Shown here piece after piece: positions 22,492 to 60,173 of a stretch of DNA of 64,000 nucleotides. Below the pieces are notes generated by a model. The model was not told where the DNA came from, did not search any database, and worked only from the letters and a program-made list of their open reading frames with translations. The DNA lies in NCBI GenBank assembly GCA_009392195.1, contig VFGY01000037.1:124001-188000 (forward strand), read 5' to 3'. Positions within the stretch are counted from its first letter, which is position 1, and each line of letters opens with the position of its first letter. The translations under genes and the position numbers were made by a program. This DNA comes from SAR202 cluster bacterium. Lineage in GTDB: Bacteria > Chloroflexota > Dehalococcoidia > Lucifugimonadales > OSU-TB39.

Positions 22492-23373
22492 TTGAGTAAA
22501 CTTTCAACCAAATTAAAATCCGGAAAATTCGCAGTAACATGTGAACTAAATCCTCCCAAAGGCACTGATTTAGAAAAACTATTCAAAAAAGCCGATATGT
22601 TAAAAGACCGAGTAGTAGCCATCAACATTACAGATTCGGCAGGTTCGAATATGACTATGGCACCTATTGCAGTATCACATTTTTTAAACCATAGAGGGAT
22701 TGAACCAATATTGCAAATCACAGGTAGGGATAGAAATAGGATAGCAATCCAGGCAGATTTGATTGCTGCTAGTGCTCTAGGAATAACCAATATTTTGACA
22801 ATGAGCGGTGACCCACCTCAACACGGGGATCATCCAGAAGCTAAACCTGTGTTTGACCTGAATTCAACACAAGTATTAGATGCAATGAAGTCTATGCAGG
22901 GAGGAAAAGATCTCGGGGAAAACGTTCTAGAAGGTAATCCCGAATTCTTTAGAGGCGCTGTAGTAAATCCTGGAGCCAAAGACCTTGAGAGTGAATTTGC
23001 CAAAATGGAAGAAAAGGTTTCAAGCGGAGCTCAATTCTTCCAAACACAGGCGATATTTGAACCTGATGCTTTGGAAGAATTTATGGTAACAGCAAAAAAG
23101 TTTGATGTTCCAATTCTTGCCGGAATAATTGTTCTTAAATCCACCAAAATGGCAAATTATTTGAACTCATACCTGCCAGGAATATCAATACCAGATAATA
23201 TTATTAAAAGTCTTGATTTAAACGATAGAGAAGCCATCAAAAAAGAAAGTGTTTCCATCACTTCAAATATCATAAAGGAAATTCAAGGAATGTGTGACGG
23301 GGTACATGTTATGGCTATCGGGTGGGAAAATACAATTCCTGATATCCTCGACCAGTCAAATATAAGAAATTAA
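22492..23373 (+). CDS. Methylenetetrahydrofolate reductase-like protein
   Basis: 293 residues, MTHFR TIM barrel. It starts KFAVTCELNPPKGTDLEKL (the catalytic Glu in CELNPP), then ITDSAGSNMTMAP, QITGRDRNRIAIQADL, LTMSGDPP, and SSGAQFFQTQAIFEP. It makes 5-methyl-THF from methylene-THF, the methyl donor that the corrinoid operon at 37-41 kb could use. TTG start at 22492-22494 with GGAG upstream (in ATCGGAGAAATTAACC). First of a run with acpS, nnr and ubiE/menG. Confidence 0.93.
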   Translation: MSKLSTKLKSGKFAVTCELNPPKGTDLEKLFKKADMLKDRVVAINITDSAGSNMTMAPIAVSHFLNHRGIEPILQITGRDRNRIAIQADLIAASALGITNILTMSGDPPQHGDHPEAKPVFDLNSTQVLDAMKSMQGGKDLGENVLEGNPEFFRGAVVNPGAKDLESEFAKMEEKVSSGAQFFQTQAIFEPDALEEFMVTAKKFDVPILAGIIVLKSTKMANYLNSYLPGISIPDNIIKSLDLNDREAIKKESVSITSNIIKEIQGMCDGVHVMAIGWENTIPDILDQSNIRN

Positions 23374-33888: not shown

Positions 33889-34890
33889 TTACTTAATCTT
33901 GGCTCTCAAATTATCTGCTTCCAACAATCCAATATTAACTATATTTTCGGGTATTTTGCCAACCAAAACGTTCCCAACCTGACCCGCCGCTCGTTGTTCT
34001 AGTTCAAGTACAGCTTCCTGCGAAAAAAATGCGGTGTGAGGTGTCACTATAACGTTTTGATTTTTGATTAACCTATGATTTGTATCAGGTTTTATATCAA
34101 CCAAAACATCTACTCCTGCTCCAGCAATAGTTTGCGAGTTTAATGCTTCATGTAAAGCATCTTCATCAATTAACCCTCCTCGAGCACAGTTAATAAGAAA
34201 TGCATCATTTCTCATCATTTTGAATTGTTCATTGCCAAACATATTTTCAGTAGCAGGTATAAGTGGAGAATGTAAAGTAACAAAATGCGACTCAGCCAAT
34301 AAATCGTCTAGTTCAACTTTTTTAACGCCAAATTGCTTCATAAAATCAGATTCAATCATTGGGTCAAAAGATAAAACATCTAATCCAAAGGATTGTGCTT
34401 TTTCAGCTACCATCCGGCCTATCCTGCCAAAACCGACAATTCCTAATGTTTTACCCCTTAACCTCATTATGCGCATACCTAACCCAGCATTACCCCAACC
34501 TGATAATTTAGTATCATTATTATGCAAAACTATTTTCCTATTCCATGCCAATAATAAGCCAATTACGTGGTCAGACACTTCATCTACACAATAGTCCGGC
34601 ACATATGTAACAAGTATGCCCTGCCTAGTTGCCTCTTGCACATCAATGTTATCAACACCGACTCCAAATCTACCTATTACCTTACAATTTTTAGCTGACT
34701 TAACAACATTATCTGTAACCTTGGCAAAACAAGTTAAAATCCCGTCAACTTCCTTGGCCAAATCTATTAAAGTATCCTCATTTCCATCAGGAGCAACTAT
34801 AAGATCAATGCCATGTTGGGCCAACACTTTCTTTTCTGGTTCCGTCGAAGGCCATACATAATCTGTTATCAGTACTTTTTTTGTTGGCAT
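33889..34890 (-). CDS. D-2-hydroxyacid dehydrogenase family protein
   Basis: About 333 residues from the ATG at 34888-34890 (GAGG seven bases upstream; a GTG two codons earlier is adjacent to GAGG, too close). Domains: substrate-binding IVAPDGNEDTL... and NAD-binding GIVGFGRIGRMVAEKAQ. Catalytic Arg is in CARGGLIDE and His in TPHTAFFSQEA. The expected Glu (as in the DVFxxEP loop of SerA) is replaced: the loop reads VDVLVDIKPDT. Last gene of the corrinoid operon; it may reduce or oxidise a product of demethylation. Confidence 0.85.
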   Translation of the reverse strand: MPTKKVLITDYVWPSTEPEKKVLAQHGIDLIVAPDGNEDTLIDLAKEVDGILTCFAKVTDNVVKSAKNCKVIGRFGVGVDNIDVQEATRQGILVTYVPDYCVDEVSDHVIGLLLAWNRKIVLHNNDTKLSGWGNAGLGMRIMRLRGKTLGIVGFGRIGRMVAEKAQSFGLDVLSFDPMIESDFMKQFGVKKVELDDLLAESHFVTLHSPLIPATENMFGNEQFKMMRNDAFLINCARGGLIDEDALHEALNSQTIAGAGVDVLVDIKPDTNHRLIKNQNVIVTPHTAFFSQEAVLELEQRAAGQVGNVLVGKIPENIVNIGLLEADNLRAKIK

Positions 34891-34918
34891 ATTCACACCT
34901 CATTATTAATTATCATAC

Positions 34919-36532
34919 CTACATAATCATCGGGTTAAATTGACACCCATCTACAAATAACTCAAAAAAATCTTCCGTTGTTTCAAGTTCAATGTGTTCT
35001 ATATTGTTACATATTTCTTCTATTTGCGATCTTAATCGACCTGAAACCAGCATCTGACTAGCTCCTTGAAGAGCTGTATTGCCAACCCTATGGATATTTT
35101 CAAGTCTTACATTCGCAATAAACCCAATTTCAATAGCATTTTTGATATCTAAATAATTCCCAAATCCACCCGCGATGTACATGTTTGAAACATCTTCAGG
35201 GATTATTCCATATTCTCTAAGAACTATCTTTTGACCACAATAATTTGCAGCTTTTGCCTGTGCTAATGCACTGATATCGCTTCGTGACAAAGCAAGATCA
35301 TATTCGGGTGCAATAATAAATTCATCCAGTCCTTTTTCCAACACTCCCAAGTAATTCATTTTACCCGCGTTTTTGAGTTCAGCCAAAAGATCTATCAATC
35401 CTGAACCGCAAATACCTGTCGGATTTACTCCTGATATAGTTTTATATTTGAGGATATCCCTTTCAAACTGAACGTGCTCTATTGCACCATCATAAGCAGG
35501 CATACCATATTTAATTTCTCCCCCCTCAAAAGCCGGGCCAGCAGGACAAGAAGCAGCAATCATTCTATCTTTGTTTCCCACAACAACTTCTGTATTTGTC
35601 CCAACATCAACTAACATAGATATCTGTTCATTGTTACCCATTCCAACGGCAAGCAAATCAGCTGCTACATCTGACCCAACATGGCAACCTATCAAAGGTC
35701 CTCCATATACATTCGCATCAGGAAACACTCGCAAACCAATTTGTTTAGCTTTAGTATTTAATGCCGTAGTTTTAACTTTGTTTTGATTAAATTCAATCTC
35801 AATTTTTGATTTGTAAGGCTTTTCTCCTATACTAGCTACGTCTAGCCCAAAAAATAGATCTCTCATGGTAGCATTACCAACTACTACTACTTCATAAATA
35901 CACCTTCTGTGAAATTTCAACTGCCTGCTCATTAATCCTATTTCAAAATTTATAGCTGAAATCATTACTTTTTGTAATTCACCTTGATATTCAGATGTAT
36001 CATACGAAATCCTATTCATCACGTCACTCCCACCAAATTTTTGAGGGTTTTCAAAAGACGTGATGTATTTAACTTCTCCAGTTTCTAAATCCAGTAGATT
36101 CATTACAACTGTAGTAGTTCCAATATCTATAGCCAACCCATACATAACACCCTTGAATTTATCTATTAATTTGCCTTCATAATATACTTTTCCATCATAC
36201 ATTTTAGTCAAAGCATCAAGTTCTAGCCGTTTTTGGGAAGACTCAACCAATATTTTAGGTTGCCTGCGAAGTACATTAAATTGTACTTCGGCATCAATAT
36301 CATCTATATATGCCTGACACGCCAACCGAAATCCTTGCGTTAGAAAAGATTCGGCTGAAGTAGGTGTATTCAAAGAAGAAATGCCTCTTTTCACCTCTAC
36401 TATACATTCATGACATTTTCCATTACGCCCACATGAGGTAGGTACGCGAACATTCAATATATCAGCGTATTCAAATAATGTTTTATTCGAAACAGATTCT
36501 AATTTTTGGTCGCCATAATTTACAGGAGACAT
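34919..36532 (-). CDS. RACo-type reactivator of corrinoid protein (2Fe-2S + ASKHA)
   Basis: 537 residues. A plant-type ferredoxin domain has Cys at 34, 40, 43 and 72 (PTSCGRNGKCHECIVEV...LAC), then a linker and an actin-like ATPase domain starting GLAIDIGTTTVVMNLLD, with VDVGTNTEVV, CPAGPAFEGGEI, GICGSGLIDLLAE and IAGGFGNYL. Such proteins use ATP and a low-potential electron to reduce Co(II) back to Co(I) in methyl-transfer corrinoid proteins. Its place after the corrinoid gene supports that role. ATG 36530-36532. Confidence 0.92.
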   Translation of the reverse strand: MSPVNYGDQKLESVSNKTLFEYADILNVRVPTSCGRNGKCHECIVEVKRGISSLNTPTSAESFLTQGFRLACQAYIDDIDAEVQFNVLRRQPKILVESSQKRLELDALTKMYDGKVYYEGKLIDKFKGVMYGLAIDIGTTTVVMNLLDLETGEVKYITSFENPQKFGGSDVMNRISYDTSEYQGELQKVMISAINFEIGLMSRQLKFHRRCIYEVVVVGNATMRDLFFGLDVASIGEKPYKSKIEIEFNQNKVKTTALNTKAKQIGLRVFPDANVYGGPLIGCHVGSDVAADLLAVGMGNNEQISMLVDVGTNTEVVVGNKDRMIAASCPAGPAFEGGEIKYGMPAYDGAIEHVQFERDILKYKTISGVNPTGICGSGLIDLLAELKNAGKMNYLGVLEKGLDEFIIAPEYDLALSRSDISALAQAKAANYCGQKIVLREYGIIPEDVSNMYIAGGFGNYLDIKNAIEIGFIANVRLENIHRVGNTALQGASQMLVSGRLRSQIEEICNNIEHIELETTEDFFELFVDGCQFNPMIM

Positions 36533-36639
36533 ATCATTATAATTCCTGATAAGTTTTGAAAATTAAATCAAATAATCCATAAACTTAAAATTGGATAAAC
36601 TATCTAAACAATTCATTAATACTAACTTGTATTAATTTA

Positions 36640-36885
36640 TTAAACTTCCCAAGCATTACGATAATCTAACTTATCACTTCCTATACAAGGGAAGGGAGAC
36701 CCATCATTGATAGAACGGTCCTGATTCCTACAACCAAACTTTGCGGTACAATTATCCTTGGCATCTTTGTATGGGCATCGCCATTTCGAAACTTCTGTTG
36801 CATTTGTAGCTATATTTTCATATATGGCTTCGAGTTTTTTTATGCTTTCAAAATACCTGTTTTTGTTTACGCTATTAGAACTCAA
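36640..36885 (-). CDS. Small four-Cys protein of the corrinoid operon
   Basis: 81 residues, soluble, with Cys37, Cys46, Cys52 and Cys67 (WRCPYKDAKDNCTAKFGC ... PFPCIGSD), a spacing that could bind Zn or an Fe-S cluster. N-terminal half is a predicted helix (FESIKKLEAIYENIATNATEV). TTG start at 36883-36885. It lies 23 nt after the corrinoid protein and about 107 nt before the reactivator, so it belongs to the same transcript. I do not recognise a named family. Confidence 0.7.
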   Translation of the reverse strand: MSSNSVNKNRYFESIKKLEAIYENIATNATEVSKWRCPYKDAKDNCTAKFGCRNQDRSINDGSPFPCIGSDKLDYRNAWEV

Positions 36886-36908
36886 GGTTTATTCCCAATC
36901 AGTTAAAG

Positions 36909-37646
36909 TTATTCTTGTAAAGCTAATGTTTTCGCAATCTCCACACAATCAATTGCATCTTTACCATAACCATCAGCTCCCATATCGTCAGCAAAATCTT
37001 GAGTAACTGGTGCACCACCTACCATAATCTTCACTTCCTCCCTCATGCCTTCATCTTCAAAAGCTTGTATGACTCTTCCCATATTAGGCATAGTGGTTGT
37101 AAGCAAAGCCGACATACCTAACACGTGAGCTTCATGTTCCTGAACAGCATCTATGAAATCTTCTGGCTTAGTGTCAACTCCTAAATCGTGTACTATAAAT
37201 CCGGCCCCTCTCATCATCATGATGCATAAGTTTTTCCCGATATCATGCAAATCACCTTTTACAGTGCCCATAATCACCGTACCTACAGGCGGTATATCTG
37301 ATTCTGAAAGAATCGGTTCTATATGCGCCATACCAGCTTTCATAGCTCTTGCAGAAATAAGAACTTCAGGAACAAAAATAATATTATCCCTGAACTTTAT
37401 TCCTACAATAGCCATCCCCGCAATTAAACCATCATCCATGACAGTATTAGCAGTAAATCCTGCGTCTAGTGCTTTAGAAGTAAGTTGATCTACTTCCTTA
37501 TCATTCCCTGTTATCAACGCATAAGCTATTTCCTGCATCAAAGGCTCTGTTTGTTCATACATTTCTTGAATGTGTTTTAATTCGGAAGGATTGGCAATAT
37601 GCTTCATCTCTTGCAACACACCTTCATTTACTATCGGCATCTTCAA
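36909..37646 (-). CDS. Corrinoid-binding methyltransferase protein (MtaC/MtbC/MtgC-like)
   Basis: 245 residues. The N-terminal four-helix cap domain contains the cobalamin-capping FVPEVLISARAM; the Rossmann-like domain carries the base-off/His-on motif DxHxxG (D132, H134, G137 in VKGDLHDIGKNL) plus SALLTTTM and VGGAPV. It carries a methyl group on cobalt between donor and acceptor enzymes. Downstream of the pterin methyltransferase, upstream of the reactivator. The donor cannot be named from this protein. Confidence 0.95.
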   Translation of the reverse strand: MKMPIVNEGVLQEMKHIANPSELKHIQEMYEQTEPLMQEIAYALITGNDKEVDQLTSKALDAGFTANTVMDDGLIAGMAIVGIKFRDNIIFVPEVLISARAMKAGMAHIEPILSESDIPPVGTVIMGTVKGDLHDIGKNLCIMMMRGAGFIVHDLGVDTKPEDFIDAVQEHEAHVLGMSALLTTTMPNMGRVIQAFEDEGMREEVKIMVGGAPVTQDFADDMGADGYGKDAIDCVEIAKTLALQE

Positions 37647-37718
37647 ACTCCAAATGTAAATCTAAATTTTTAAAATACCATTATACTGAACTCTTAGTAA
37701 ATAGTAACGCAAATAGGC

Positions 37719-38741
37719 TTATTGAAGCCTTCCATCTCTATAGGCCTGTAGATAATTGACACAAAATTCATCCTTTCCGGTCAACATATCTATAGCCAGA
37801 CTAACTTTTTCGGAATGTGTATCAATGTTATACACTTCTTCCAACTTTATTTGTATTGGATCTATTAATCCTGAATCAATCCCTGCATCAATACCTAAGT
37901 GTATAAAAGCCTGATTAATCAATTTCCTCATAGGCATTCCAAATGAAACATTGCTAAGACCCATTCCAATATGCAATTGGCTTCCATATTCTTTCCGTAA
38001 TTGTCTTACCGCATTGAAATAATGATTCCCATATTGAGAATTTACTGAGATTGGAAATACAATTGCATCTAAATAAATTTCTTCTAGGGAAAATCCAATC
38101 CGAACCAATTCATCCAATATTTTTTTTGCGTTTTCTACGCGGTCATCTTCATCTTCGGGCATACCTGTTTCACTAGTTGCCATTGCAATAACATTTGCTT
38201 TATATTCTAACGCCATCTCAAATACTTCAGGGCGTTCAAATGCTACTGAGTTTATTAAAGGCGGAACACTGTTTCTTTTATATGCTTTCAACCCTGATTC
38301 TATAATATCGGAATTAGATGAATCTATACTGATGGGCACAGAGGAAACATGTTGAGCAATCTCCATCGTACGAGCCATACAATTTTTCTGTATTTCTAGA
38401 TCATAATGCACTTCATCCACATTAATATCAATATAATTCGCCCCTGCTTTAATTTGCCTGTAAACAGCGTTTTGAATATATTGTTCTCCTTCCAATCTTG
38501 CATCGTCATCATTACTTATCAAATTAGTCATTGCTATAAGAAAATGTTTAACTTGCCCTTGCTGGTAAGGTTGGGTTTCTTTAAACCATTCCGGGACTTT
38601 CATAAATTTTTGTTCACCAGAGTCATCCTTGTAGCTTACAGCTTCAAATCCTTCGTCAGTTTTAACCACTCTTTTACCACTTGAACGAAACACTCTAGTA
38701 GCATGAATATTCTCGCCTACAATTATAAATTTGTCCGACAT
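37719..38741 (-). CDS. Pterin-binding methyltransferase (MtrH/MtvA-like)
   Basis: 340 residues. The fold is the TIM barrel of methyl-THF:corrinoid methyltransferases and of MetH's second module: opening IIVGENIHATRVF, NYIDINVDEVHYD, VPISIDSSNSDIIESGLKA, INSVAF, and LHIGMGLSNVSFGMP, where Asn/Asp line the pterin pocket. It would transfer a methyl between the corrinoid protein and THF in either direction. 45 nt after the UroD-like gene. ATG 38739-38741. Confidence 0.92.
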   Translation of the reverse strand: MSDKFIIVGENIHATRVFRSSGKRVVKTDEGFEAVSYKDDSGEQKFMKVPEWFKETQPYQQGQVKHFLIAMTNLISNDDDARLEGEQYIQNAVYRQIKAGANYIDINVDEVHYDLEIQKNCMARTMEIAQHVSSVPISIDSSNSDIIESGLKAYKRNSVPPLINSVAFERPEVFEMALEYKANVIAMATSETGMPEDEDDRVENAKKILDELVRIGFSLEEIYLDAIVFPISVNSQYGNHYFNAVRQLRKEYGSQLHIGMGLSNVSFGMPMRKLINQAFIHLGIDAGIDSGLIDPIQIKLEEVYNIDTHSEKVSLAIDMLTGKDEFCVNYLQAYRDGRLQ

Positions 38742-38786
38742 ATTTCTAATGTTTCTCCATTTATTTTTTGGAAGGTTGAATTATTT

Positions 38787-39827
38787 CTAGATTGATAAAT
38801 TTTCATCAGTCCAATCTTGTACCGCTTTTGGTATTTCAAGTAAATTTTCCAACTTGGTGGCTAATGGGATGGCGCATTCAGGAGCAATTAATGGAATCCC
38901 GGCATCCAAACATTTATAAACCTCCTCTCTAACCTCCTGAGGCCCTTTACTATACAAAGTAACTGGGTTATTAACATTCCCTACAAGCTGTATCCTGCCA
39001 TCTACTATCTCCATCGCTTTTGCCGGATCATTTCTAGAGTCAAAATGAAAAGCTGCCATTTTATTTTGTGCTATATAATCCATCCTGTCTAAAGTATAAC
39101 CACAAATATGCAATATAAGTGGCACTTTTAAATCCTCGACTGCTTCCTGATGTATATCTAGCAAAAACTTTCTATAATATTCGCCACTTACCAAATCTCC
39201 GGTTGCATGATCTGGGTATGTTAACACATCAGCTCCTGCATCTATTTGAGCCTGTCCAAATAAAACCGATATCTCTTTCAATTTATTTAAACATTTAATA
39301 GTTAGATCAGGATCATCAATTGACATAAGCAAAAATGTTTCTACCCCGAACACATGATACGCAAGAGTCCATGGCCCCATGGTTTTTCCAATGATGGCAA
39401 CCTCATTTCCAAATTCTTGCTTAAGTATTTTTATGGACTCTATAATTGCCAAATTATCTTGATGTTGCAAAAAATTATCTGGAACATGAATATCTTCAAC
39501 CGATTTCCAAATAGGATTACTCATCCTTACAGTAGGCCAATTGTCTTTCTGTTCCCATTGCATTTCACAACCCAACGCTGAAGATTCCTGGATAATCGTA
39601 AAATATGGTGCTATAGAATCAAACCCTAATTCCGTATATCCTGTAGCAGCTAACCTTGCATTAAGTTCAGGATCTCGACATGCATCTGGGAAAGGTGCAT
39701 CTACTAAATCCATAAGTTCAACTGTTGCTACATTCGTCGGATTCGAGATAGGCGTGCGGTCTACAGGCAATCCATTCAAAGCATTCATAACTCTTTCTCT
39801 AGGTGTCATTTTTTTAGTTGCAACCAT
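38787..39827 (-). CDS. UroD-family corrinoid methyltransferase (MtaA/VdmB-like)
   Basis: 346 residues, uroporphyrinogen-decarboxylase fold, but with the zinc site of the methyltransferase branch: H240 and C242 in LILHICGYTLD and C318 in IAPECAIP (H-x-C...C). This separates it from true UroD in haem synthesis. In other organisms relatives methylate coenzyme M or take methyl from methoxy aromatics. It may be the substrate-specific enzyme of the cluster (methyl donor unknown). No MttB-type trimethylamine or betaine methyltransferase is present. Confidence 0.88.
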   Translation of the reverse strand: MVATKKMTPRERVMNALNGLPVDRTPISNPTNVATVELMDLVDAPFPDACRDPELNARLAATGYTELGFDSIAPYFTIIQESSALGCEMQWEQKDNWPTVRMSNPIWKSVEDIHVPDNFLQHQDNLAIIESIKILKQEFGNEVAIIGKTMGPWTLAYHVFGVETFLLMSIDDPDLTIKCLNKLKEISVLFGQAQIDAGADVLTYPDHATGDLVSGEYYRKFLLDIHQEAVEDLKVPLILHICGYTLDRMDYIAQNKMAAFHFDSRNDPAKAMEIVDGRIQLVGNVNNPVTLYSKGPQEVREEVYKCLDAGIPLIAPECAIPLATKLENLLEIPKAVQDWTDENLSI

Positions 39828-39869
39828 TGATGTCCTCCTGAATTTCCTAAAATAATTGGCGTGAGATTT

Positions 39870-40544
39870 TTATTCTTGGGTTGAAAACCCAAGAGTGCTT
39901 GTGGTCATTTGGCCTCGCATAGAGTCCGCATCTAACATGTCCTGAGTCCCTGTTATATTTCGAGCGTAAGGGAGAATAATACGAACTAATTCATCCCTTT
40001 GATATCCTCCTTTAAACATCACTTTAGTATTATCTATTTTTTCCATATCTCCATATCTAATAAACCCTTGAACTGTTGCTCGTTTCCGCAATTCTGGGTT
40101 TTTAAATTCCCCTTCAGTGGTTACTTCATAAATTCTTTTATCATTTTCGTCATAAGAATTGATAATCAATGTCAGAGGAGATCGAAGATCTTTAATGGTA
40201 ATCGGGCCGTCTGGATGCCTATAATTAGAAGGTTTTTCTACAGCTAGCTTAATTAAAAATTTGACTGGCCTATCATACAGTTCATCATTGGGAAATTTAA
40301 CTTGGTTATTTGTATCTGACACAGGCACCATCCCACCCAAATTAACTAATTGATCTCTTATCTCACTTATTCTATTAGAAACGCCAGGCACCTTACTAAA
40401 TGTCCAAACAGTGTAAACATTATTTTTTTCATACAAACCCACACTGATATCCTTAAAATGAGGATCAATCGATATTAGCTCTGAGCATTTTCCAATCCTA
40501 TCTAAGATATCTTTCACATTTTCTTTATTATCTATTTGATTCAT
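39870..40544 (-). CDS. Unknown protein of the corrinoid operon
   Basis: 224 residues, no signal peptide or membrane segment. Predicted alpha-plus-beta: an N-terminal mixed part with HFKDISVGLYEKNNVYTVWTFSK, a central beta-rich part (DRPVKFLIKLAVEKP, SPLTLIINSYDENDK, IYEVTTEG), and a C-terminal stretch RDELVRIILPYARNITGTQDMLDADSMRG. No motif I can name. It sits between the homocysteine- and UroD-type methyltransferases (20 and 42 nt), so it is most likely a partner subunit. Start ATG 40542-40544. Confidence 0.75.
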   Translation of the reverse strand: MNQIDNKENVKDILDRIGKCSELISIDPHFKDISVGLYEKNNVYTVWTFSKVPGVSNRISEIRDQLVNLGGMVPVSDTNNQVKFPNDELYDRPVKFLIKLAVEKPSNYRHPDGPITIKDLRSPLTLIINSYDENDKRIYEVTTEGEFKNPELRKRATVQGFIRYGDMEKIDNTKVMFKGGYQRDELVRIILPYARNITGTQDMLDADSMRGQMTTSTLGFSTQE

Positions 40545-40564
40545 TTTATTGCCTTTTTCTTGAT

Positions 40565-41464
40565 TTATATTTTACCCCTCGGATAACTTGAGACAACAGA
40601 GTTTATAGCAGAAATATGACTAGGTGTTGTACCACAACATCCTCCAATTATATTTATTTTTGCATCAATCAATTCTTTAAACTTTTCAGACATGATTTCG
40701 GGAGTTTCAGGATAAACTATCCTCCCTTTTATGATTTTAGGAAATCCTGCATTGCTGTGTATAACCAAGGGCCCATCATCAACATTTCTCATTATTTTTG
40801 CTATTTTAACCATATTGTCTATCCCATTTCCACAATTTGCCCCAACTGCATCTGCTCCTTTTCTTCGAATTTCCCGAACTGCCACTTCGGGAGTCACTCC
40901 CATCATCGTGAAAAACCCCCTAGGTCCTAAATCAAATGTCATCGTAGCCATCACAACTAAATTCGTGTTGAGTTTTGCAGCTTCTACAGCTAAAATAGCT
41001 TCTTCTAAAGATGTCATAGTTTCTATGATTATTGCATCAGCTCCACCTTTCTCTAAAGCTTTAACCTGTTCTTTAAACCCTGCAAACATTTCCTTTTCAC
41101 TTATAGAACCGAGAGGTTGCAAAAATTCGCCTGTAGGCCCAACAGAACCTAAAACAAATTTATCACTTGGGCAAGCGCTCTTAGCATGTTCTGCTGCTTT
41201 TATGTTAATCCTCTCCAATTCGTTCCTTAATCCATATTTAGACAACATGAAAGGGTTGCCGCCAAATGAATTTGTTAAAACTAAATCCGCACCATTAATA
41301 AAATAGTCGGTTGCCATTTTAACAATAAGTTCAGGATTGGTTAAATTCAGGTGCTCTGGACACCCTCCTGGCTCCAACCCATTACTTTGCAAATAGGTGC
41401 CTGTAGCGCCATCAGATACAAGAGTTTCGCCACTTTCAATTCTTTTTAACAAATTCATTCCCAA
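40565..41464 (-). CDS. Homocysteine S-methyltransferase family protein
   Basis: 299 residues, homologous to the N-terminal module of MetH, BHMT and MmuM. Zinc/homocysteine site: C211 in VGANCGNG, and C276-C277 in IIGGCCGTTP; the opening LVSDGATGTYLQSNGLEPGG and TNSFGGNPFML are typical. With the separate corrinoid and pterin modules it could form methionine, or it could be a donor-side S-methyltransferase. 7 nt after the small upstream gene. MNLL two codons in is an alternative start. Confidence 0.92.
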   Translation of the reverse strand: MGMNLLKRIESGETLVSDGATGTYLQSNGLEPGGCPEHLNLTNPELIVKMATDYFINGADLVLTNSFGGNPFMLSKYGLRNELERINIKAAEHAKSACPSDKFVLGSVGPTGEFLQPLGSISEKEMFAGFKEQVKALEKGGADAIIIETMTSLEEAILAVEAAKLNTNLVVMATMTFDLGPRGFFTMMGVTPEVAVREIRRKGADAVGANCGNGIDNMVKIAKIMRNVDDGPLVIHSNAGFPKIIKGRIVYPETPEIMSEKFKELIDAKINIIGGCCGTTPSHISAINSVVSSYPRGKI

Positions 41465-41471
41465 GTTTTGC

Positions 41472-41831
41472 CTAATATTCTATCCAGTGGTCTATAGAAC
41501 CAGGTGTGGGTTTTCTGTTGCCTTGTTTCTGTAAATCTCTGATTTTAGACACAAAATCTCTAGGGAATTTATTGTTGAACAGGTTAACCTTATCTTGTAA
41601 CACACTATTTATTTCCCCTTGTGCTAAAGAGCTTTCACCCCACAAGAAACCATTTAAATAATCATCCGTCCCATAACTATTTTCAAACATCGCTATAGCG
41701 TCCACCCCTTCTTGGAATCTATCCTCTAGTTGGCATGATTTTTTATTTCCATCAGATTCAACTTCTACCTGTAACGGTATTTCTTTCCAATACAAAATCC
41801 GAACATTAACTTTTTCTAGTTTGTTTTTCAT
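41472..41831 (-). CDS. Small protein, 'virulence factor' (PF13769-like) family
   Basis: 119 residues. ILYWKEIPLQVEVES near the N-terminus, then CQLEDRFQEGVDAIAMF, matches my memory of the short 'Virulence_fact' family (pattern YW.dIPaqV...lp.RF..aiD..Am), often next to corrinoid methyltransferase genes. The C-terminal end FVSKIRDLQKQG is helical. It is the first gene of the operon, 7 nt before the homocysteine methyltransferase. The family match is by eye; function unknown. Confidence 0.6.
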   Translation of the reverse strand: MKNKLEKVNVRILYWKEIPLQVEVESDGNKKSCQLEDRFQEGVDAIAMFENSYGTDDYLNGFLWGESSLAQGEINSVLQDKVNLFNNKFPRDFVSKIRDLQKQGNRKPTPGSIDHWIEY

Positions 41832-42013: not shown

Positions 42014-43447
42014 ATGAACTCTAAAGAACTAGCCTTTAAACCTGCTTCAGAACTTCGTGATTTACTGTTAAACAAAGAAGTTTCGCCAGTTGAAATAACG
42101 CGCATTTACCTTGATCGGATAGATGCCTTGGATCAACATTTAAATTCTTTTATAACTACTACTCCAGAAAAAGCTATGGAAGATGCTCAGGCAGCTGAAA
42201 AAGCCATAATGGATAAAGAAATCCTAGGCCCACTCCATGGCATTCCAATATCGATAAAAGACCTTGAATCTACACGAGGAATAAAAACAACGATGGGGTC
42301 TTTAATTTTCAAGGAAAAGGTTCCCGAATTCGATTCGATTGTGGTTGAAAGAATACGCAAATCCGGTGCAATTATTTTAGGTAAAACAAACACACCAGAA
42401 TTCGGGCTTTTGGGATCAACAGAAAATAGATTGGGCGGCTCAACCTGGGAAAATCATTGTAGAAATCCATGGAACAATGAAATGACATCTGGAGGTTCTA
42501 GCGGCGGAGCTGCTTCAGCGATATCAGCCGGTTTATGTGCCTTAGCCACAGGCAGTGATGGTGGAGGCTCAATAAGGATACCTGCCAGTTTTTGTGGTGT
42601 TTACGGTATAAAACCTACCTTAGGAACAATCCCACGTTACCCAGGCTTTCCTACTCCTCCTCTTGCAAACCAAACCAGTCAAGCTGGGCCAATAACAAGA
42701 ACAGTAAAAGATTCTATGATGCTTTTAAGCGTTATTGCTGGACATGACGAAAGAGATCCCATATCTCTTAATAAATCTCCCAATGAAATAGTTGATTTAA
42801 ATGAAGCCAATTTTGATAAATTAAGAATTGGGTGGATTGACCATTTTGGTTTTGGACAGATAGATGAAGAAGTTGTTTCAATCTGTAAAAAAACGGTTGA
42901 TTCTATACAACAAAATGGAAATGTTGATTCAGTGGGAATTGACATAGGTGAACCATTTGAAGCATTTTGGACATTATTCAGCACAAACGTCTTTGCTTCA
43001 TATCAAAAATTATATAAAAACAACGAATCTCAATTAGCTTGGTATACACAAAAATGCCTTGAATATGGATCTAAGGTAACAGGAGTTGACTATGCTCGTG
43101 CCGTTGGCGAAATTGACATTATCAAAGCAAAATTTGCTTCGGCCTTTGAAAACTTCGACTTGATATTTACTCCTACTACTTCGGTTCCAGCATTTCCCGT
43201 TGGCAAACCTCCAACCAAAATAAACGGTCATGAAACAAACGAATTCTGGGGAGCATTTCCTAATACATTCCCAATAAATATGATAGGAAATCCAGCAGCG
43301 AGCATACCATGCGGTTTCACTAAAAATAAATTGCCAGTAGGATTACACATAATTGGCAAACCCAATTGCGAAGCTACTGTTCTGGCAGCATCTCTAAAAC
43401 TTGAATCCAATAATCCATGGATTCAAGAAACACCTCCGATTTCATAA
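42014..43447 (+). CDS. Amidase (amidase-signature family)
   Basis: 477 residues. Catalytic Lys-cis-Ser-Ser triad: K82 (PISIKDLES), S162 (SGGSSGG) and S186 (DGGGSIRIP), spaced as in fatty-acid amide hydrolase. Substrate unknown; GatA is less likely, since no gatB or gatC is adjacent and the C-terminal GatA landmarks (GEGGIPCG-like) are absent. ATG 42014 with AAGGTG upstream. Confidence 0.92.
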   Translation: MNSKELAFKPASELRDLLLNKEVSPVEITRIYLDRIDALDQHLNSFITTTPEKAMEDAQAAEKAIMDKEILGPLHGIPISIKDLESTRGIKTTMGSLIFKEKVPEFDSIVVERIRKSGAIILGKTNTPEFGLLGSTENRLGGSTWENHCRNPWNNEMTSGGSSGGAASAISAGLCALATGSDGGGSIRIPASFCGVYGIKPTLGTIPRYPGFPTPPLANQTSQAGPITRTVKDSMMLLSVIAGHDERDPISLNKSPNEIVDLNEANFDKLRIGWIDHFGFGQIDEEVVSICKKTVDSIQQNGNVDSVGIDIGEPFEAFWTLFSTNVFASYQKLYKNNESQLAWYTQKCLEYGSKVTGVDYARAVGEIDIIKAKFASAFENFDLIFTPTTSVPAFPVGKPPTKINGHETNEFWGAFPNTFPINMIGNPAASIPCGFTKNKLPVGLHIIGKPNCEATVLAASLKLESNNPWIQETPPIS

Positions 43448-58165: not shown

Positions 58166-58420
58166 TATATGTGAAGAAATACAGGCTGAGAAGGGGAGTA
58201 GTAAAGGATACAATTTACAGAGAGTTGGAACTAGTGAAACCCAGCATTATCCTTGAACTCGCCCCAGAGCTCCCTATTTGAACCAGATAAATCAAGTAAA
58301 GTAGGGCGGTTAGGCCCCGTAATAAGGCCAAGACAAGAGGTCGCTTAAAAATAGCGGCAATTTGGGTGGTACCGCGAGATTAACATGATCCCGTCCCGAA
58401 AGGACGGGTTTATTTTTTTT
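58166..58420 (+). promoter_or_regulatory. T-box riboswitch leader, leucine specifier, for ilvB operon
   Basis: Stem I: GGGG (58193-58196) with CCCC (58262-58265), AAGGATA with TATCCTT, the E-loop AGTAGTA opposite GAA-CTC-G. The specifier is CTC (58258-58260), a Leu codon. The distal AG-bulge AGAGAG is at 58218-58224. The T-box GGGTGGTACCGCG is at 58364-58376 with UGGU, whose last base fits the A discriminator of tRNA-Leu. The terminator (below) competes. Uncharged tRNA-Leu would let transcription into ilvB-ilvN-ilvC-leuA. About 80 nt before ilvB; the rest of 57973-58165 has no gene. Confidence 0.9.
58390..58420 (+). terminator. T-box terminator hairpin
   Basis: Stem CCCGTCC / GGACGGG (58390-58396, 58402-58408), loop CGAAA, then TTTATTTTTTTT. 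It forms when the T-box antiterminator is not stabilised by uncharged tRNA. Confidence 0.9.
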
Positions 58421-58466: not shown

Positions 58467-60173
58467 ATGAAACTTACAGGTGCTCAACTAGTTTGCGAAA
58501 GTTTAATGAAAGAGGGAGTTGATACCATATTCGGCTTGCCTGGCGGAGCTATATTGCCTCTTTACCAAACATTGCCTGAATATACTCAATTGAAGCATAT
58601 CTTGGTTCGCCACGAACAAGGAGCTGCTCATGCAGCAGATGGCTATGCAAGAGTAACAGGCAAAGCTGGTGTTGCATGGGCCACATCGGGTCCGGGAGCC
58701 ACTAACTTAATAACAGGTATTGCAACTGCACAAATGGATTCAGTACCCATGGTTGTTATTACCGGACAAGTATCTCGTGCCTCGATAGGTAGCGATGCCT
58801 TTCAGGAAACAGATACAACAGGAATTTCGTTACCAGTAACCAAACATAACTACTTGGTAATGGACGCAGCAGATATTCCAATGATAATAAAAGAAGCCTT
58901 TCATATTGCTACTACAGGACGACCCAGTCCAGTTCTTGTAGACATACCCAAAGATGTTTTTACAGAAGAAGTAGAATATCCCGATGGGCTTATATATCCA
59001 GAATCTCTTAACTTGCCCGGGTATAAACCTTCAGTTGCTGGAAATATTGGTCAAATCAAAAAAGCCGCTAAGCTAATAAATAAATCGGCTAAGCCCGTAA
59101 TTTTAGCCGGTCACGGGATTATTTTTTCTGGCGCATATAATGAACTTAAAACCCTTGCCGAAAAAGCCCAAATCCCGGTTATCACAACTCTTCTTGGAAT
59201 AAGTTCCTTCCCTGAGGACCATGTTTTAAGTGTTGGCATGCCTGGCATGCATGGAGTTGCTTACGCTAGCTTGGCCATAGAAAAAGCCGATCTTCTGATA
59301 GCTTTAGGCATGCGATTTGACGACAGAATCACCGGAAAACCAAGCGAGTTTGCCAAAGCATCTCGAAAAATACATGTCGATATAGACCCTTCTGAAATCG
59401 GGAAAAATGTTCCGGTTGACGTACCGATTGTTGGTGACATTAAAAACGTCTTAGAAAAACTTAACCAATATGTTGAATCAAATACCCATGTTGAATGGAT
59501 ACAAAATATTGAACAACTAAAATCAGACCACCCTTCACTAGAAATAAGGGAAACAGACAAATTACTGCCTCAATATATAATTCGAGAATTATCTGAAGCA
59601 ACTAAAGGTAAGGCAATAATGGTAACTGGGGTTGGCCAGCATCAAATGTGGGCAGCCCAACATTATACGTATACTGAACCTAGAAGTTGGATTACTTCTG
59701 GGGGCTCTGGGGCAATGGGCTACGAAGTTCCAGGAGCTATGGGGGCGCAAGTAGGAAACCCTGATAGAGTTGTATGGTCCATAGCGGGAGACGGCGGATT
59801 CCAGATGACCATGTCTGAACTCGCTACATTGGTGGAAAATAAAATCCCTGTTAAATTTGCTATTATTAACAACAACGTTTTAGGCATGGTTAGGCAGTGG
59901 CAAGAATTCTTTTACGATAAATCATACGTCGCTACTACTTATACCAACAATCCTGATTTCGTCAAACTCGCAGAAGCTTTTGGAATGCTTGGAATAAGAG
60001 TAACTTCCAAAAATCAGGTTAGGTCTTCCATAGAGAAAGCAATGGAACATGATGGTCCTGCCTTAATCGACTTCGTGGTTGAAGAAGAGGAAAATGTATA
60101 TCCAATGATTCCAGCTGGCCAAACTATTGAAAATCTCATAGAGGAACCAGCCAATGAGGAAATCAAAACATGA
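58467..60173 (+). CDS. ilvB: Acetolactate synthase large subunit
   Basis: 568 residues. Condenses two pyruvates, or pyruvate with 2-oxobutyrate, on thiamine diphosphate. GLPGGAILPLYQ at the N-terminus, RHEQGAAHAADGYARVTGK (catalytic Glu), a FAD-binding middle domain, and the ThDP motif GDGGFQMTMSELATLVENKIPVK ... NNNVLGMVRQWQ. ATG with AAGGAG about 11 nt upstream. Overlaps ilvN by 4 nt and is controlled by the leucine T-box. Confidence 0.98.
   Translation: MKLTGAQLVCESLMKEGVDTIFGLPGGAILPLYQTLPEYTQLKHILVRHEQGAAHAADGYARVTGKAGVAWATSGPGATNLITGIATAQMDSVPMVVITGQVSRASIGSDAFQETDTTGISLPVTKHNYLVMDAADIPMIIKEAFHIATTGRPSPVLVDIPKDVFTEEVEYPDGLIYPESLNLPGYKPSVAGNIGQIKKAAKLINKSAKPVILAGHGIIFSGAYNELKTLAEKAQIPVITTLLGISSFPEDHVLSVGMPGMHGVAYASLAIEKADLLIALGMRFDDRITGKPSEFAKASRKIHVDIDPSEIGKNVPVDVPIVGDIKNVLEKLNQYVESNTHVEWIQNIEQLKSDHPSLEIRETDKLLPQYIIRELSEATKGKAIMVTGVGQHQMWAAQHYTYTEPRSWITSGGSGAMGYEVPGAMGAQVGNPDRVVWSIAGDGGFQMTMSELATLVENKIPVKFAIINNNVLGMVRQWQEFFYDKSYVATTYTNNPDFVKLAEAFGMLGIRVTSKNQVRSSIEKAMEHDGPALIDFVVEEEENVYPMIPAGQTIENLIEEPANEEIKT

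What the first reader, a model, noticed from the sequence alone, without database searches (positions are those of the whole stretch)
33889..41831. Nine-gene corrinoid methyl-transfer operon of unknown substrate
One minus-strand run (gaps of 7-107 nt) encodes a PF13769-like small protein, a homocysteine methyltransferase, an unknown 224-residue protein, a UroD-type methyltransferase with the H-x-C...C zinc site, an MtrH-type pterin methyltransferase, a corrinoid protein with DxHxxG, a four-Cys small protein, a RACo-type ATPase and a 2-hydroxyacid dehydrogenase. All parts needed to take a methyl from a donor, carry it on cobalt, pass it to THF or homocysteine and reactivate the cobalt are present, but no MttB, MtaB or betaine methyltransferase shows what the donor is. 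In an apparently respiring organism that also has PDH and quinone methylase, a set normally linked with anaerobes is worth attention.
Basis: partly seen in the sequence, partly recalled or inferred. Interest (0 to 1): 0.78.

Follow-up and report, generated by a model that had tools for sequence, protein, structure and literature searches.

The report
Split methionine synthase with unknown methyl partner
A marine bacterium most likely of the SAR202 group, which seems to lack the usual methionine-making enzymes, carries a conserved gene set that looks like a vitamin-B12 methionine synthase split into separate proteins, joined by an extra methyl-transfer enzyme whose target compound is still unknown.

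Summary
The nine-gene operon is real and conserved. The same gene order recurs in 20 loci from related genomes and about 80 named loci, nearly all SAR202/Dehalococcoidia. The own genome has no full-length MetH and no MetE-grade hit, so MtrH + corrinoid protein + homocysteine methyltransferase + RACo read as a split cobalamin methionine synthase, as shown genetically in Phaeobacter and Ruegeria. Comparative test: of 77 operon-bearing genomes, 51 of the 52 with the MtrH gene lack MetH/MetE, and 22 of the 25 without MtrH have MetH/MetE; the swap occurred about four times on the tree, always the same way. The rest of the operon persists either way, so that core must move methyl groups between an unknown compound and, probably, homocysteine. 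The UroD-type enzyme is not HemE. It keeps a His-Cys-Cys zinc site in all 86 homologues read and forms its own clade beside MtaA, Mlp and CmuA, so a methyl-sulfur, methyl-selenium or methyl-halide compound is likeliest. No MttB occurs in 59 genomes. The "virulence factor" PF13769 is fused to RACo or to the corrinoid protein elsewhere, so it belongs to corrinoid handling. New variant of a known kind.

The parts
41472..41831 (-). PF13769 ('virulence factor') small protein; probable accessory of corrinoid protein/reactivase
   Evidence: PF13769 45.7 bits; same domain fused to RACo in Terrarubrum (760 aa) and, below Pfam's cut-off, at the C-terminus of the corrinoid protein in Gemmatirosa; separate gene in the S. 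meliloti cluster
40565..41464 (-). Homocysteine methyltransferase (HMT, MtgE-like), zinc Cys 211/276/277
   Evidence: PF02574 224 bits; best PDB relative is T. maritima MetH homocysteine module; all three Cys invariant in 80 homologues
39870..40544 (-). 224-aa protein of a family without Pfam, NCBIfam, PHROGs or PDB match; co-occurs with the UroD-type enzyme; invariant C-terminal RGQMTT-TLGF tail
   Evidence: AlphaFold2 pLDDT 87.6, no PDB fold match at E<=0.001
38787..39827 (-). UroD-superfamily methyltransferase of the MtaA/CmuA branch with His240-Cys242-Cys318 zinc site; substrate unknown
   Evidence: NCBIfam PRK06252 260 bits (cut-off 244), TIGR01463 251 (235), hemE 77 (303); closest PDB MtaA 4ay7; zinc ligands conserved in 86 homologues; own clade away from HemE
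37719..38741 (-). MtrH/MtgD-type methyl-THF:corrinoid methyltransferase; present only where MetH/MetE are missing (one exception)
   Evidence: PF00809; PDB 4o0q and AcsE relatives; distribution
36909..37646 (-). Corrinoid (B12) protein of MtgC type, DxHxxG motif
   Evidence: PF02607+PF02310; best NCBIfam model MtgC; 49-57% identity to MtgC-type plasmid proteins of Sinorhizobium, Paracoccus, Gemmatirosa
36640..36885 (-). 81-aa four-cysteine protein, mostly between corrinoid and RACo genes; probable metal or Fe-S site, partner unknown
   Evidence: Cys 37, 46, 52, 67 invariant in 70 homologues (one ambiguous letter); low-confidence model, one helix then disordered Cys part
34919..36532 (-). RACo/RamA-type ATP-dependent reductive activase with [2Fe-2S] domain
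   Evidence: PF00111, PF17651, PF14574; PDB 3zyy RACo 265 bits
33889..34896 (-). 2-hydroxyacid dehydrogenase, phosphoglycerate-dehydrogenase-like; usual last gene, role unknown
   Evidence: PF02826/PF00389; best NCBIfam PGDH 269 bits, below its cut-off; conserved at operon end in many loci
22492..23373 (+). MetF-like methylene-THF reductase, source of methyl-THF (outside operon, divergent from folD)
   Evidence: PF02219 147 bits; MetF + MTHFR C-terminal genes lie inside the operon in several SAR202 genomes and in L073
21452..22345 (-). FolD, methylene-THF dehydrogenase/cyclohydrolase
   Evidence: PF00763/PF02882

Best explanation
The operon encodes a multi-subunit cobalamin methyl-transfer complex that serves this bacterium as its methionine synthase. 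MtrH moves the methyl group of 5-methyl-THF (made by the MetF encoded about 10 kb away) to Co(I) on the corrinoid protein, and the PF02574 protein passes it to zinc-bound homocysteine, giving methionine. RACo, with PF13769 and probably the four-Cys protein, reduces cob(II)alamin that has slipped out of the cycle, replacing the SAM-dependent activation domain of MetH. The UroD-type zinc enzyme, with the 224-aa protein, shares the same corrinoid carrier and exchanges methyl groups with a second, unidentified compound, most likely a methyl-sulfur or methyl-selenium compound or a methyl halide. Where MetH or MetE is present the MtrH gene is absent and only this donor-to-homocysteine branch remains. 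Shown by sequence: the parts, motifs, conservation and MtrH/MetH replacement. Inferred: every reaction, the direction of the UroD step, its substrate, and the roles of the 224-aa, four-Cys, PF13769 and dehydrogenase proteins.
For: No full-length MetH and no PF01717 hit of MetE/core-MetE grade in the own genome. Genomes with the 224-aa gene mostly lack MetH/MetE (21 of 27) while those without mostly have one (27 of 32), Fisher p 1.7e-6, not corrected for kinship. Among 77 operon-bearing genomes: MtrH present 52 (alternative synthase in 1), MtrH absent 25 (alternative in 22); Fisher 5e-15, not corrected for kinship. On a four-protein tree the switch happened about 4 times and all 4 independent pairs go the predicted way. 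HMT is closest to MetH's homocysteine module and keeps all zinc Cys. MetF genes inside or beside the operon in several relatives. Homologous sets are genetically shown to make methionine in aerobes (PMC5764234, PMC12478193). The S. meliloti cluster has PF13769, HMT, MtgC, MtgD, MetF and RACo together. UroD orthologue found in the 27 224-aa-positive genomes and one more, with invariant His-Cys-Cys.
Against: No experiment. The four-pair sign test alone is only p = 0.125, so the very small Fisher value partly reflects shared ancestry. One genome (G102) has both MtrH and MetE; three have neither. Most genomes are draft MAGs, and the window's own assembly is rated 9.2% contaminated. The UroD step could run in either direction; His-Cys-Cys also occurs in the halomethane enzyme CmuA, so S/Se specificity is not proven. 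No B12 or SAM riboswitch was found upstream.
Confidence: 0.75

Rival explanations
1. It is mainly a catabolic demethylase: the UroD-type enzyme takes methyl groups from an environmental donor (methylated sulfur or selenium compound, methyl halide), and MtrH passes them to THF for oxidation; homocysteine methylation is a side branch.
For: UroD and corrinoid proteins are the most conserved parts (66-82% and 67-88%) and stay when MetH is present; Cmu- and Mtg-type systems work in this direction (PMC12478193, PMC13222342); pSymB and CmuA clusters carry MetF.
Against: MtrH, which catabolism to THF would need, is absent exactly when MetH/MetE is present; an HMT is kept in almost every locus where the region is covered; thioether methyl to THF is energetically uphill (general knowledge).
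Confidence: 0.2
2. The UroD-type enzyme works in the other direction: it methylates a thiol, sulfide, selenide or metal ion with methyl-cobalt made from methyl-THF or methionine, for detoxification or synthesis.
For: MtaA-type relatives methylate thiols; the thioether exchange is near equilibrium (general knowledge); a related Mlp methylates selenide in vitro (PMC10418091).
Against: In genomes with MetH and no MtrH the methyl would have to come from methionine through an HMT of MetH type, which is unusual; no resistance or biosynthesis genes recur next to the operon.
Confidence: 0.15
3. O-demethylase (Odm/Mto type) operon for methoxylated aromatics.
For: Same parts list UroD + corrinoid + MtrH + RACo as MtoABCD (title paper PMC8630106; part assignment from general knowledge).
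Against: UroD falls in the MtaA/CmuA subfamily with invariant His-Cys-Cys, whereas O-demethylases replace one or both Cys or lack zinc (PMC10418091, PMC13222342); an HMT is part of the conserved operon.
Confidence: 0.04
4. The UroD protein is a haem-synthesis UroD by chance next to one-carbon genes.
For: It is the only PF01208 protein in the genome.
Against: hemE model 77 bits against a cut-off of 303, MtaA-type models above cut-off; tree separates it from HemE at 100/100; zinc site absent in HemE.
Confidence: 0.01

Closest known systems
Three-part methionine synthase of Phaeobacter inhibens with RamA-like reactivase (PMC5764234)
   Same: Homocysteine (PF02574), pterin (PF00809) and corrinoid (PF02607/PF02310) modules as separate proteins, DUF4445/RACo-type reactivation, no classical MetH
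   Different: Genes scattered there, one operon here; P. inhibens uses DUF1638, here none of the operon genes is DUF1638; here a UroD-type enzyme, a 224-aa protein and a four-Cys protein are added
MtgBCDE, dual methionine synthase / glycine betaine demethylase of Ruegeria and S. meliloti (PMC12478193)
   Same: Corrinoid protein 49% identical to the S. meliloti protein, MtgD 34%, HMT 38%, RACo, PF13769, MetF neighbours; one corrinoid serving two reactions
   Different: No MttB-family MtgB in the genome; the extra methyltransferase is of the UroD superfamily instead
Type 1 mlp gene clusters (PMC10418091)
   Same: UroD-superfamily enzyme with His-Cys-Cys zinc site, corrinoid protein, RACo-type activase, some without THF methylase
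   Different: Those have at least two different Mlps and occur in obligate anaerobes; here mostly one UroD, plus HMT; sequence identity to likely Mlps of Acetoanaerobium only 23-26%
Chloromethane dehalogenase CmuAB (locus L133)
   Same: UroD-type methyltransferase of TIGR01463 with His-Cys-Cys, corrinoid domain, MetF in the cluster
   Different: CmuA is a fusion; window protein is 24% identical and scores 251 against CmuA's 508 on TIGR01463
Gemmatirosa kalamazoonensis plasmid 1 cluster (locus L134)
   Same: UroD-superfamily gene, corrinoid protein fused to a PF13769-like domain, RACo (45%), HMT (40%), no MtrH found: same donor-to-homocysteine layout
   Different: UroD there lacks the His-Cys-Cys site; no 224-aa or four-Cys protein hit; has an unrelated 403-aa protein

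Membership tests
Split cobalamin-dependent methionine synthase (P. inhibens type) | Separate homocysteine, pterin and corrinoid proteins with intact motifs | tested here: met
Split cobalamin-dependent methionine synthase (P. inhibens type) | No classical MetH or MetE in the genome | tested here: met
   No long PF02574 frame, no PF01717 hit of MetE grade in G000; weaker PF01717 paralogues exist (best 1.7e-34)
Split cobalamin-dependent methionine synthase (P. inhibens type) | RamA/RACo-type reactivase | tested here: met
Split cobalamin-dependent methionine synthase (P. inhibens type) | DUF1638 partner | tested here: inconclusive
   No operon protein matches DUF1638 in Pfam; rest of genome not searched
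Split cobalamin-dependent methionine synthase (P. inhibens type) | Makes methionine in vivo | not testable with these tools
   Needs genetics or biochemistry
MtgBCDE glycine betaine/methionine system | MttB-family MtgB (PF06253) | tested here: not met
   0 of 59 genomes
MtgBCDE glycine betaine/methionine system | MtgC-type corrinoid protein | tested here: inconclusive
   Best NCBIfam model is MtgC at 208 bits, but below its strict cut-off of 370; 49% identity to the S. meliloti protein
Type 1 mlp gene cluster | At least Mlp2 and Mlp3 with corrinoid protein and Ram/RACE protein | tested here: not met
   Usually one UroD per operon; own clade
Odm/Mto O-demethylase | UroD of the O-demethylase branch, without His-Cys-Cys | tested here: not met
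   O-demethylase sequences themselves were not at hand for the tree
CmuA chloromethane dehalogenase | UroD and corrinoid domain in one protein, CmuA-level score | tested here: not met
   Separate genes; 251 against 508 bits
HemE | hemE model score and grouping with HemE | tested here: not met

The most novel reading that the evidence does not exclude
A distinct route to methionine in the dark ocean: a UroD-type His-Cys-Cys zinc enzyme with a new partner family (224 aa) strips methyl groups from a marine methyl-sulfur, methyl-selenium or methyl-halide compound and hands them through a shared corrinoid protein directly to homocysteine. By gaining or losing the MtrH module, the same complex becomes or stops being the cell's folate-dependent methionine synthase.
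Probability: 0.35. Interest if true: 0.8.

Novelty: new variant of a known kind. Interest (0 to 1): 0.6.

Why it matters
SAR202 is an abundant, uncultured group of the deep ocean. If right, this explains how many of them make methionine without MetH or MetE and ties them to vitamin B12. It also exposes an unknown methyl compound that they trade with homocysteine. It gives PF13769 ('virulence factor') a likely role in corrinoid handling, and names two uncharacterised families (224-aa and four-Cys) as parts of a corrinoid methyltransferase. The MtrH/MetH replacement makes the function directly testable.

Tried and rejected
Haem UroD: rejected. MttB/betaine donor: none in 59 genomes. Substrate clue from genes inserted into the operon in relatives: mostly DUF433-like/PD-(D/E)XK-like accessory genes (named from sequence reading) and MetF/MTHFR-C genes, so no clue beyond folate. 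Riboswitch upstream: none; the weak alpha_tmRNA hit is far below its cut-off and inside the PF13769 gene. Fold of the 224-aa protein: good model but no significant PDB match, weak Arp2/3- and PUR-like hits only. Four-Cys model too poor to use. UroD tree: most deep branches are long and open, so its nearest characterised relative is not settled. Literature: no paper in the library holds 'SAR202' with 'uroporphyrinogen decarboxylase', and none names PF13769.
Full report
OBSERVATION. Pfam and NCBIfam give: PF13769; PF02574 homocysteine methyltransferase (HMT); a 224-aa protein without any match; a UroD-superfamily protein above the cut-offs of the methylcobalamin:CoM methyltransferase (PRK06252) and MtaA/CmuA (TIGR01463) models and far below hemE; a PF00809 pterin protein (MtrH); a corrinoid protein best matched by MtgC; an 81-aa protein without match; a RACo-type activase with [2Fe-2S] domain; a PGDH-like 2-hydroxyacid dehydrogenase. 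The closest solved structures are MtaA 4ay7, the T. maritima MetH homocysteine module, methyl-THF:corrinoid methyltransferases, the corrinoid protein 1y80, and RACo 3zyy.

WHERE IT IS FOUND. Named relatives are nearly all SAR202/Dehalococcoidia MAGs; outside them the 224-aa gene occurs in two complete Entotheonella chromosomes, an Acidobacteriota MAG and a few other bins that may be misassigned. The order PF13769-HMT-224aa-UroD-(MtrH)-B12-4Cys-RACo-HADH is kept in 20 loci of the same order and in most of 80 named loci, sometimes broken by insertions or contig ends. UroD (66-82%) and the corrinoid protein (67-88%) are the most conserved parts. The UroD orthologue occurs in the 27 genomes (own plus 26 relatives) with the 224-aa gene, plus one genome, G030, where the 224-aa gene was not found.

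WHY METHIONINE SYNTHASE. The own genome has no full-length MetH and only weak PF01717 paralogues. In the order, 21 of 27 genomes with the operon lack MetH and MetE/core-MetE, while 27 of 32 without it have one. Within operon-bearing genomes the MtrH gene behaves as a switch. In the first set, all six with MetH or core-MetE lack MtrH anywhere and all 21 others have it, three of them away from the operon. In a second set of 50 genomes, 31 have MtrH and no MetH (one, G102, has a MetE), 16 have MetH (one of these, G080, a partial frame at a contig end) and no MtrH of this type, and 3 have neither. Three of the 16 (G061, G062 and G073) carry another PF00809 gene of a different score class. Combined Fisher p is 5e-15, but this ignores kinship. 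On a tree of four operon proteins the state changed about four times; all four independent pairs go the predicted way, which alone gives only p = 0.125. HMT zinc Cys and the corrinoid DxHxxG are invariant in MetH-bearing genomes too, so the remaining module is not decaying. MetF lies in the window at 22492-23373 next to folD, and MetF/MTHFR-C genes lie inside or beside the operon in several relatives.

KNOWN PARALLELS. Price et al. showed a three-part methionine synthase plus RamA-like reactivase in P. inhibens (PMC5764234). Mausz et al. showed that the same corrinoid and pterin proteins also serve glycine betaine demethylation in Ruegeria (PMC12478193). A S. meliloti pSymB cluster holds HMT, MttB, MtgC, DUF1638, PF13769, MTHFR-C, MetF, MtgD and RACo. 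Our operon has the same frame, with MttB and DUF1638 replaced by UroD, the 224-aa and the four-Cys proteins. PF13769 is fused to RACo in Terrarubrum and, at a score just below Pfam's cut-off, to the corrinoid protein in Gemmatirosa, which ties this 'virulence factor' domain to corrinoid handling. Gemmatirosa also has UroD + corrinoid + RACo + HMT without MtrH, a second example of the donor-to-homocysteine layout, with a UroD that lacks the zinc Cys.

THE UROD STEP. His240, Cys242 and Cys318 are conserved in all 86 homologues (one ambiguous letter). Kountz and Balskus argue that His-Cys-Cys marks S- or Se-methyltransferases, O-demethylases having lost one or both Cys (PMC10418091). CmuA has the same triad, so methyl halides stay possible. 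The SAR202 proteins form their own clade, separated from HemE at 100/100; their nearest characterised relative is unresolved because the branches are long. The substrate and direction are therefore inferred only.

THE UNKNOWN PROTEINS. The 224-aa family gives a confident AlphaFold2 model (pLDDT 87.6, pTM 0.82) with no significant PDB fold match; its invariant C-terminal tail is disordered in the monomer and may bind a partner (inference). The four-Cys protein has invariant Cys 37/46/52/67 and sits next to the corrinoid or RACo gene in most loci; a metal or Fe-S site is a guess. The dehydrogenase role is unknown.

VERDICT. A real, conserved operon; best read as a split B12 methionine synthase with an extra, unidentified methyl partner. 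New variant of a known kind; interest 0.6.

Noticed in passing
window 58179-58401 (+): T-box leader (121.7 bits) directly upstream of an acetolactate synthase large-subunit-like ORF (58467-60173), with a ketol-acid reductoisomerase-like ORF further on; annotation of the two ORFs by eye.
   Followed up: partly
L131:9257-11539 and L134:9016-9987: PF13769 ('Virulence factor') fused to a RACo-type activase in Terrarubrum flagellatum and (22.9 bits, below the Pfam cut-off of 25) to a corrinoid protein in Gemmatirosa kalamazoonensis, suggesting that the Pfam name is misleading.
   Followed up: yes
G000 (whole own genome): No PF01208 protein other than the operon's, so no HemE was found in a genome rated 97.9% complete; how haem is obtained was not examined.
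   Followed up: partly
L042, L046, L033, L098, L106, L101, L117: Two tandem UroD copies in the operon (some of these loci are the same contig), suggesting a second substrate in these lineages; zinc site kept in the four copies (L053, L101) checked.
   Followed up: partly
window 42014-43447 (+): An amidase gene divergent from the operon, found at the same place in a subset of relatives.
   Followed up: no
L002 (G000:C23:67720-67926): A second B12-binding cap domain in a 304-aa frame of the own genome, possibly a CarH-like regulator; not identified.
   Followed up: no
L134:11851-13062: 403-aa Gemmatirosa protein with several Cys between RACo and HMT genes, no Pfam match; possible further corrinoid partner.
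   Followed up: no
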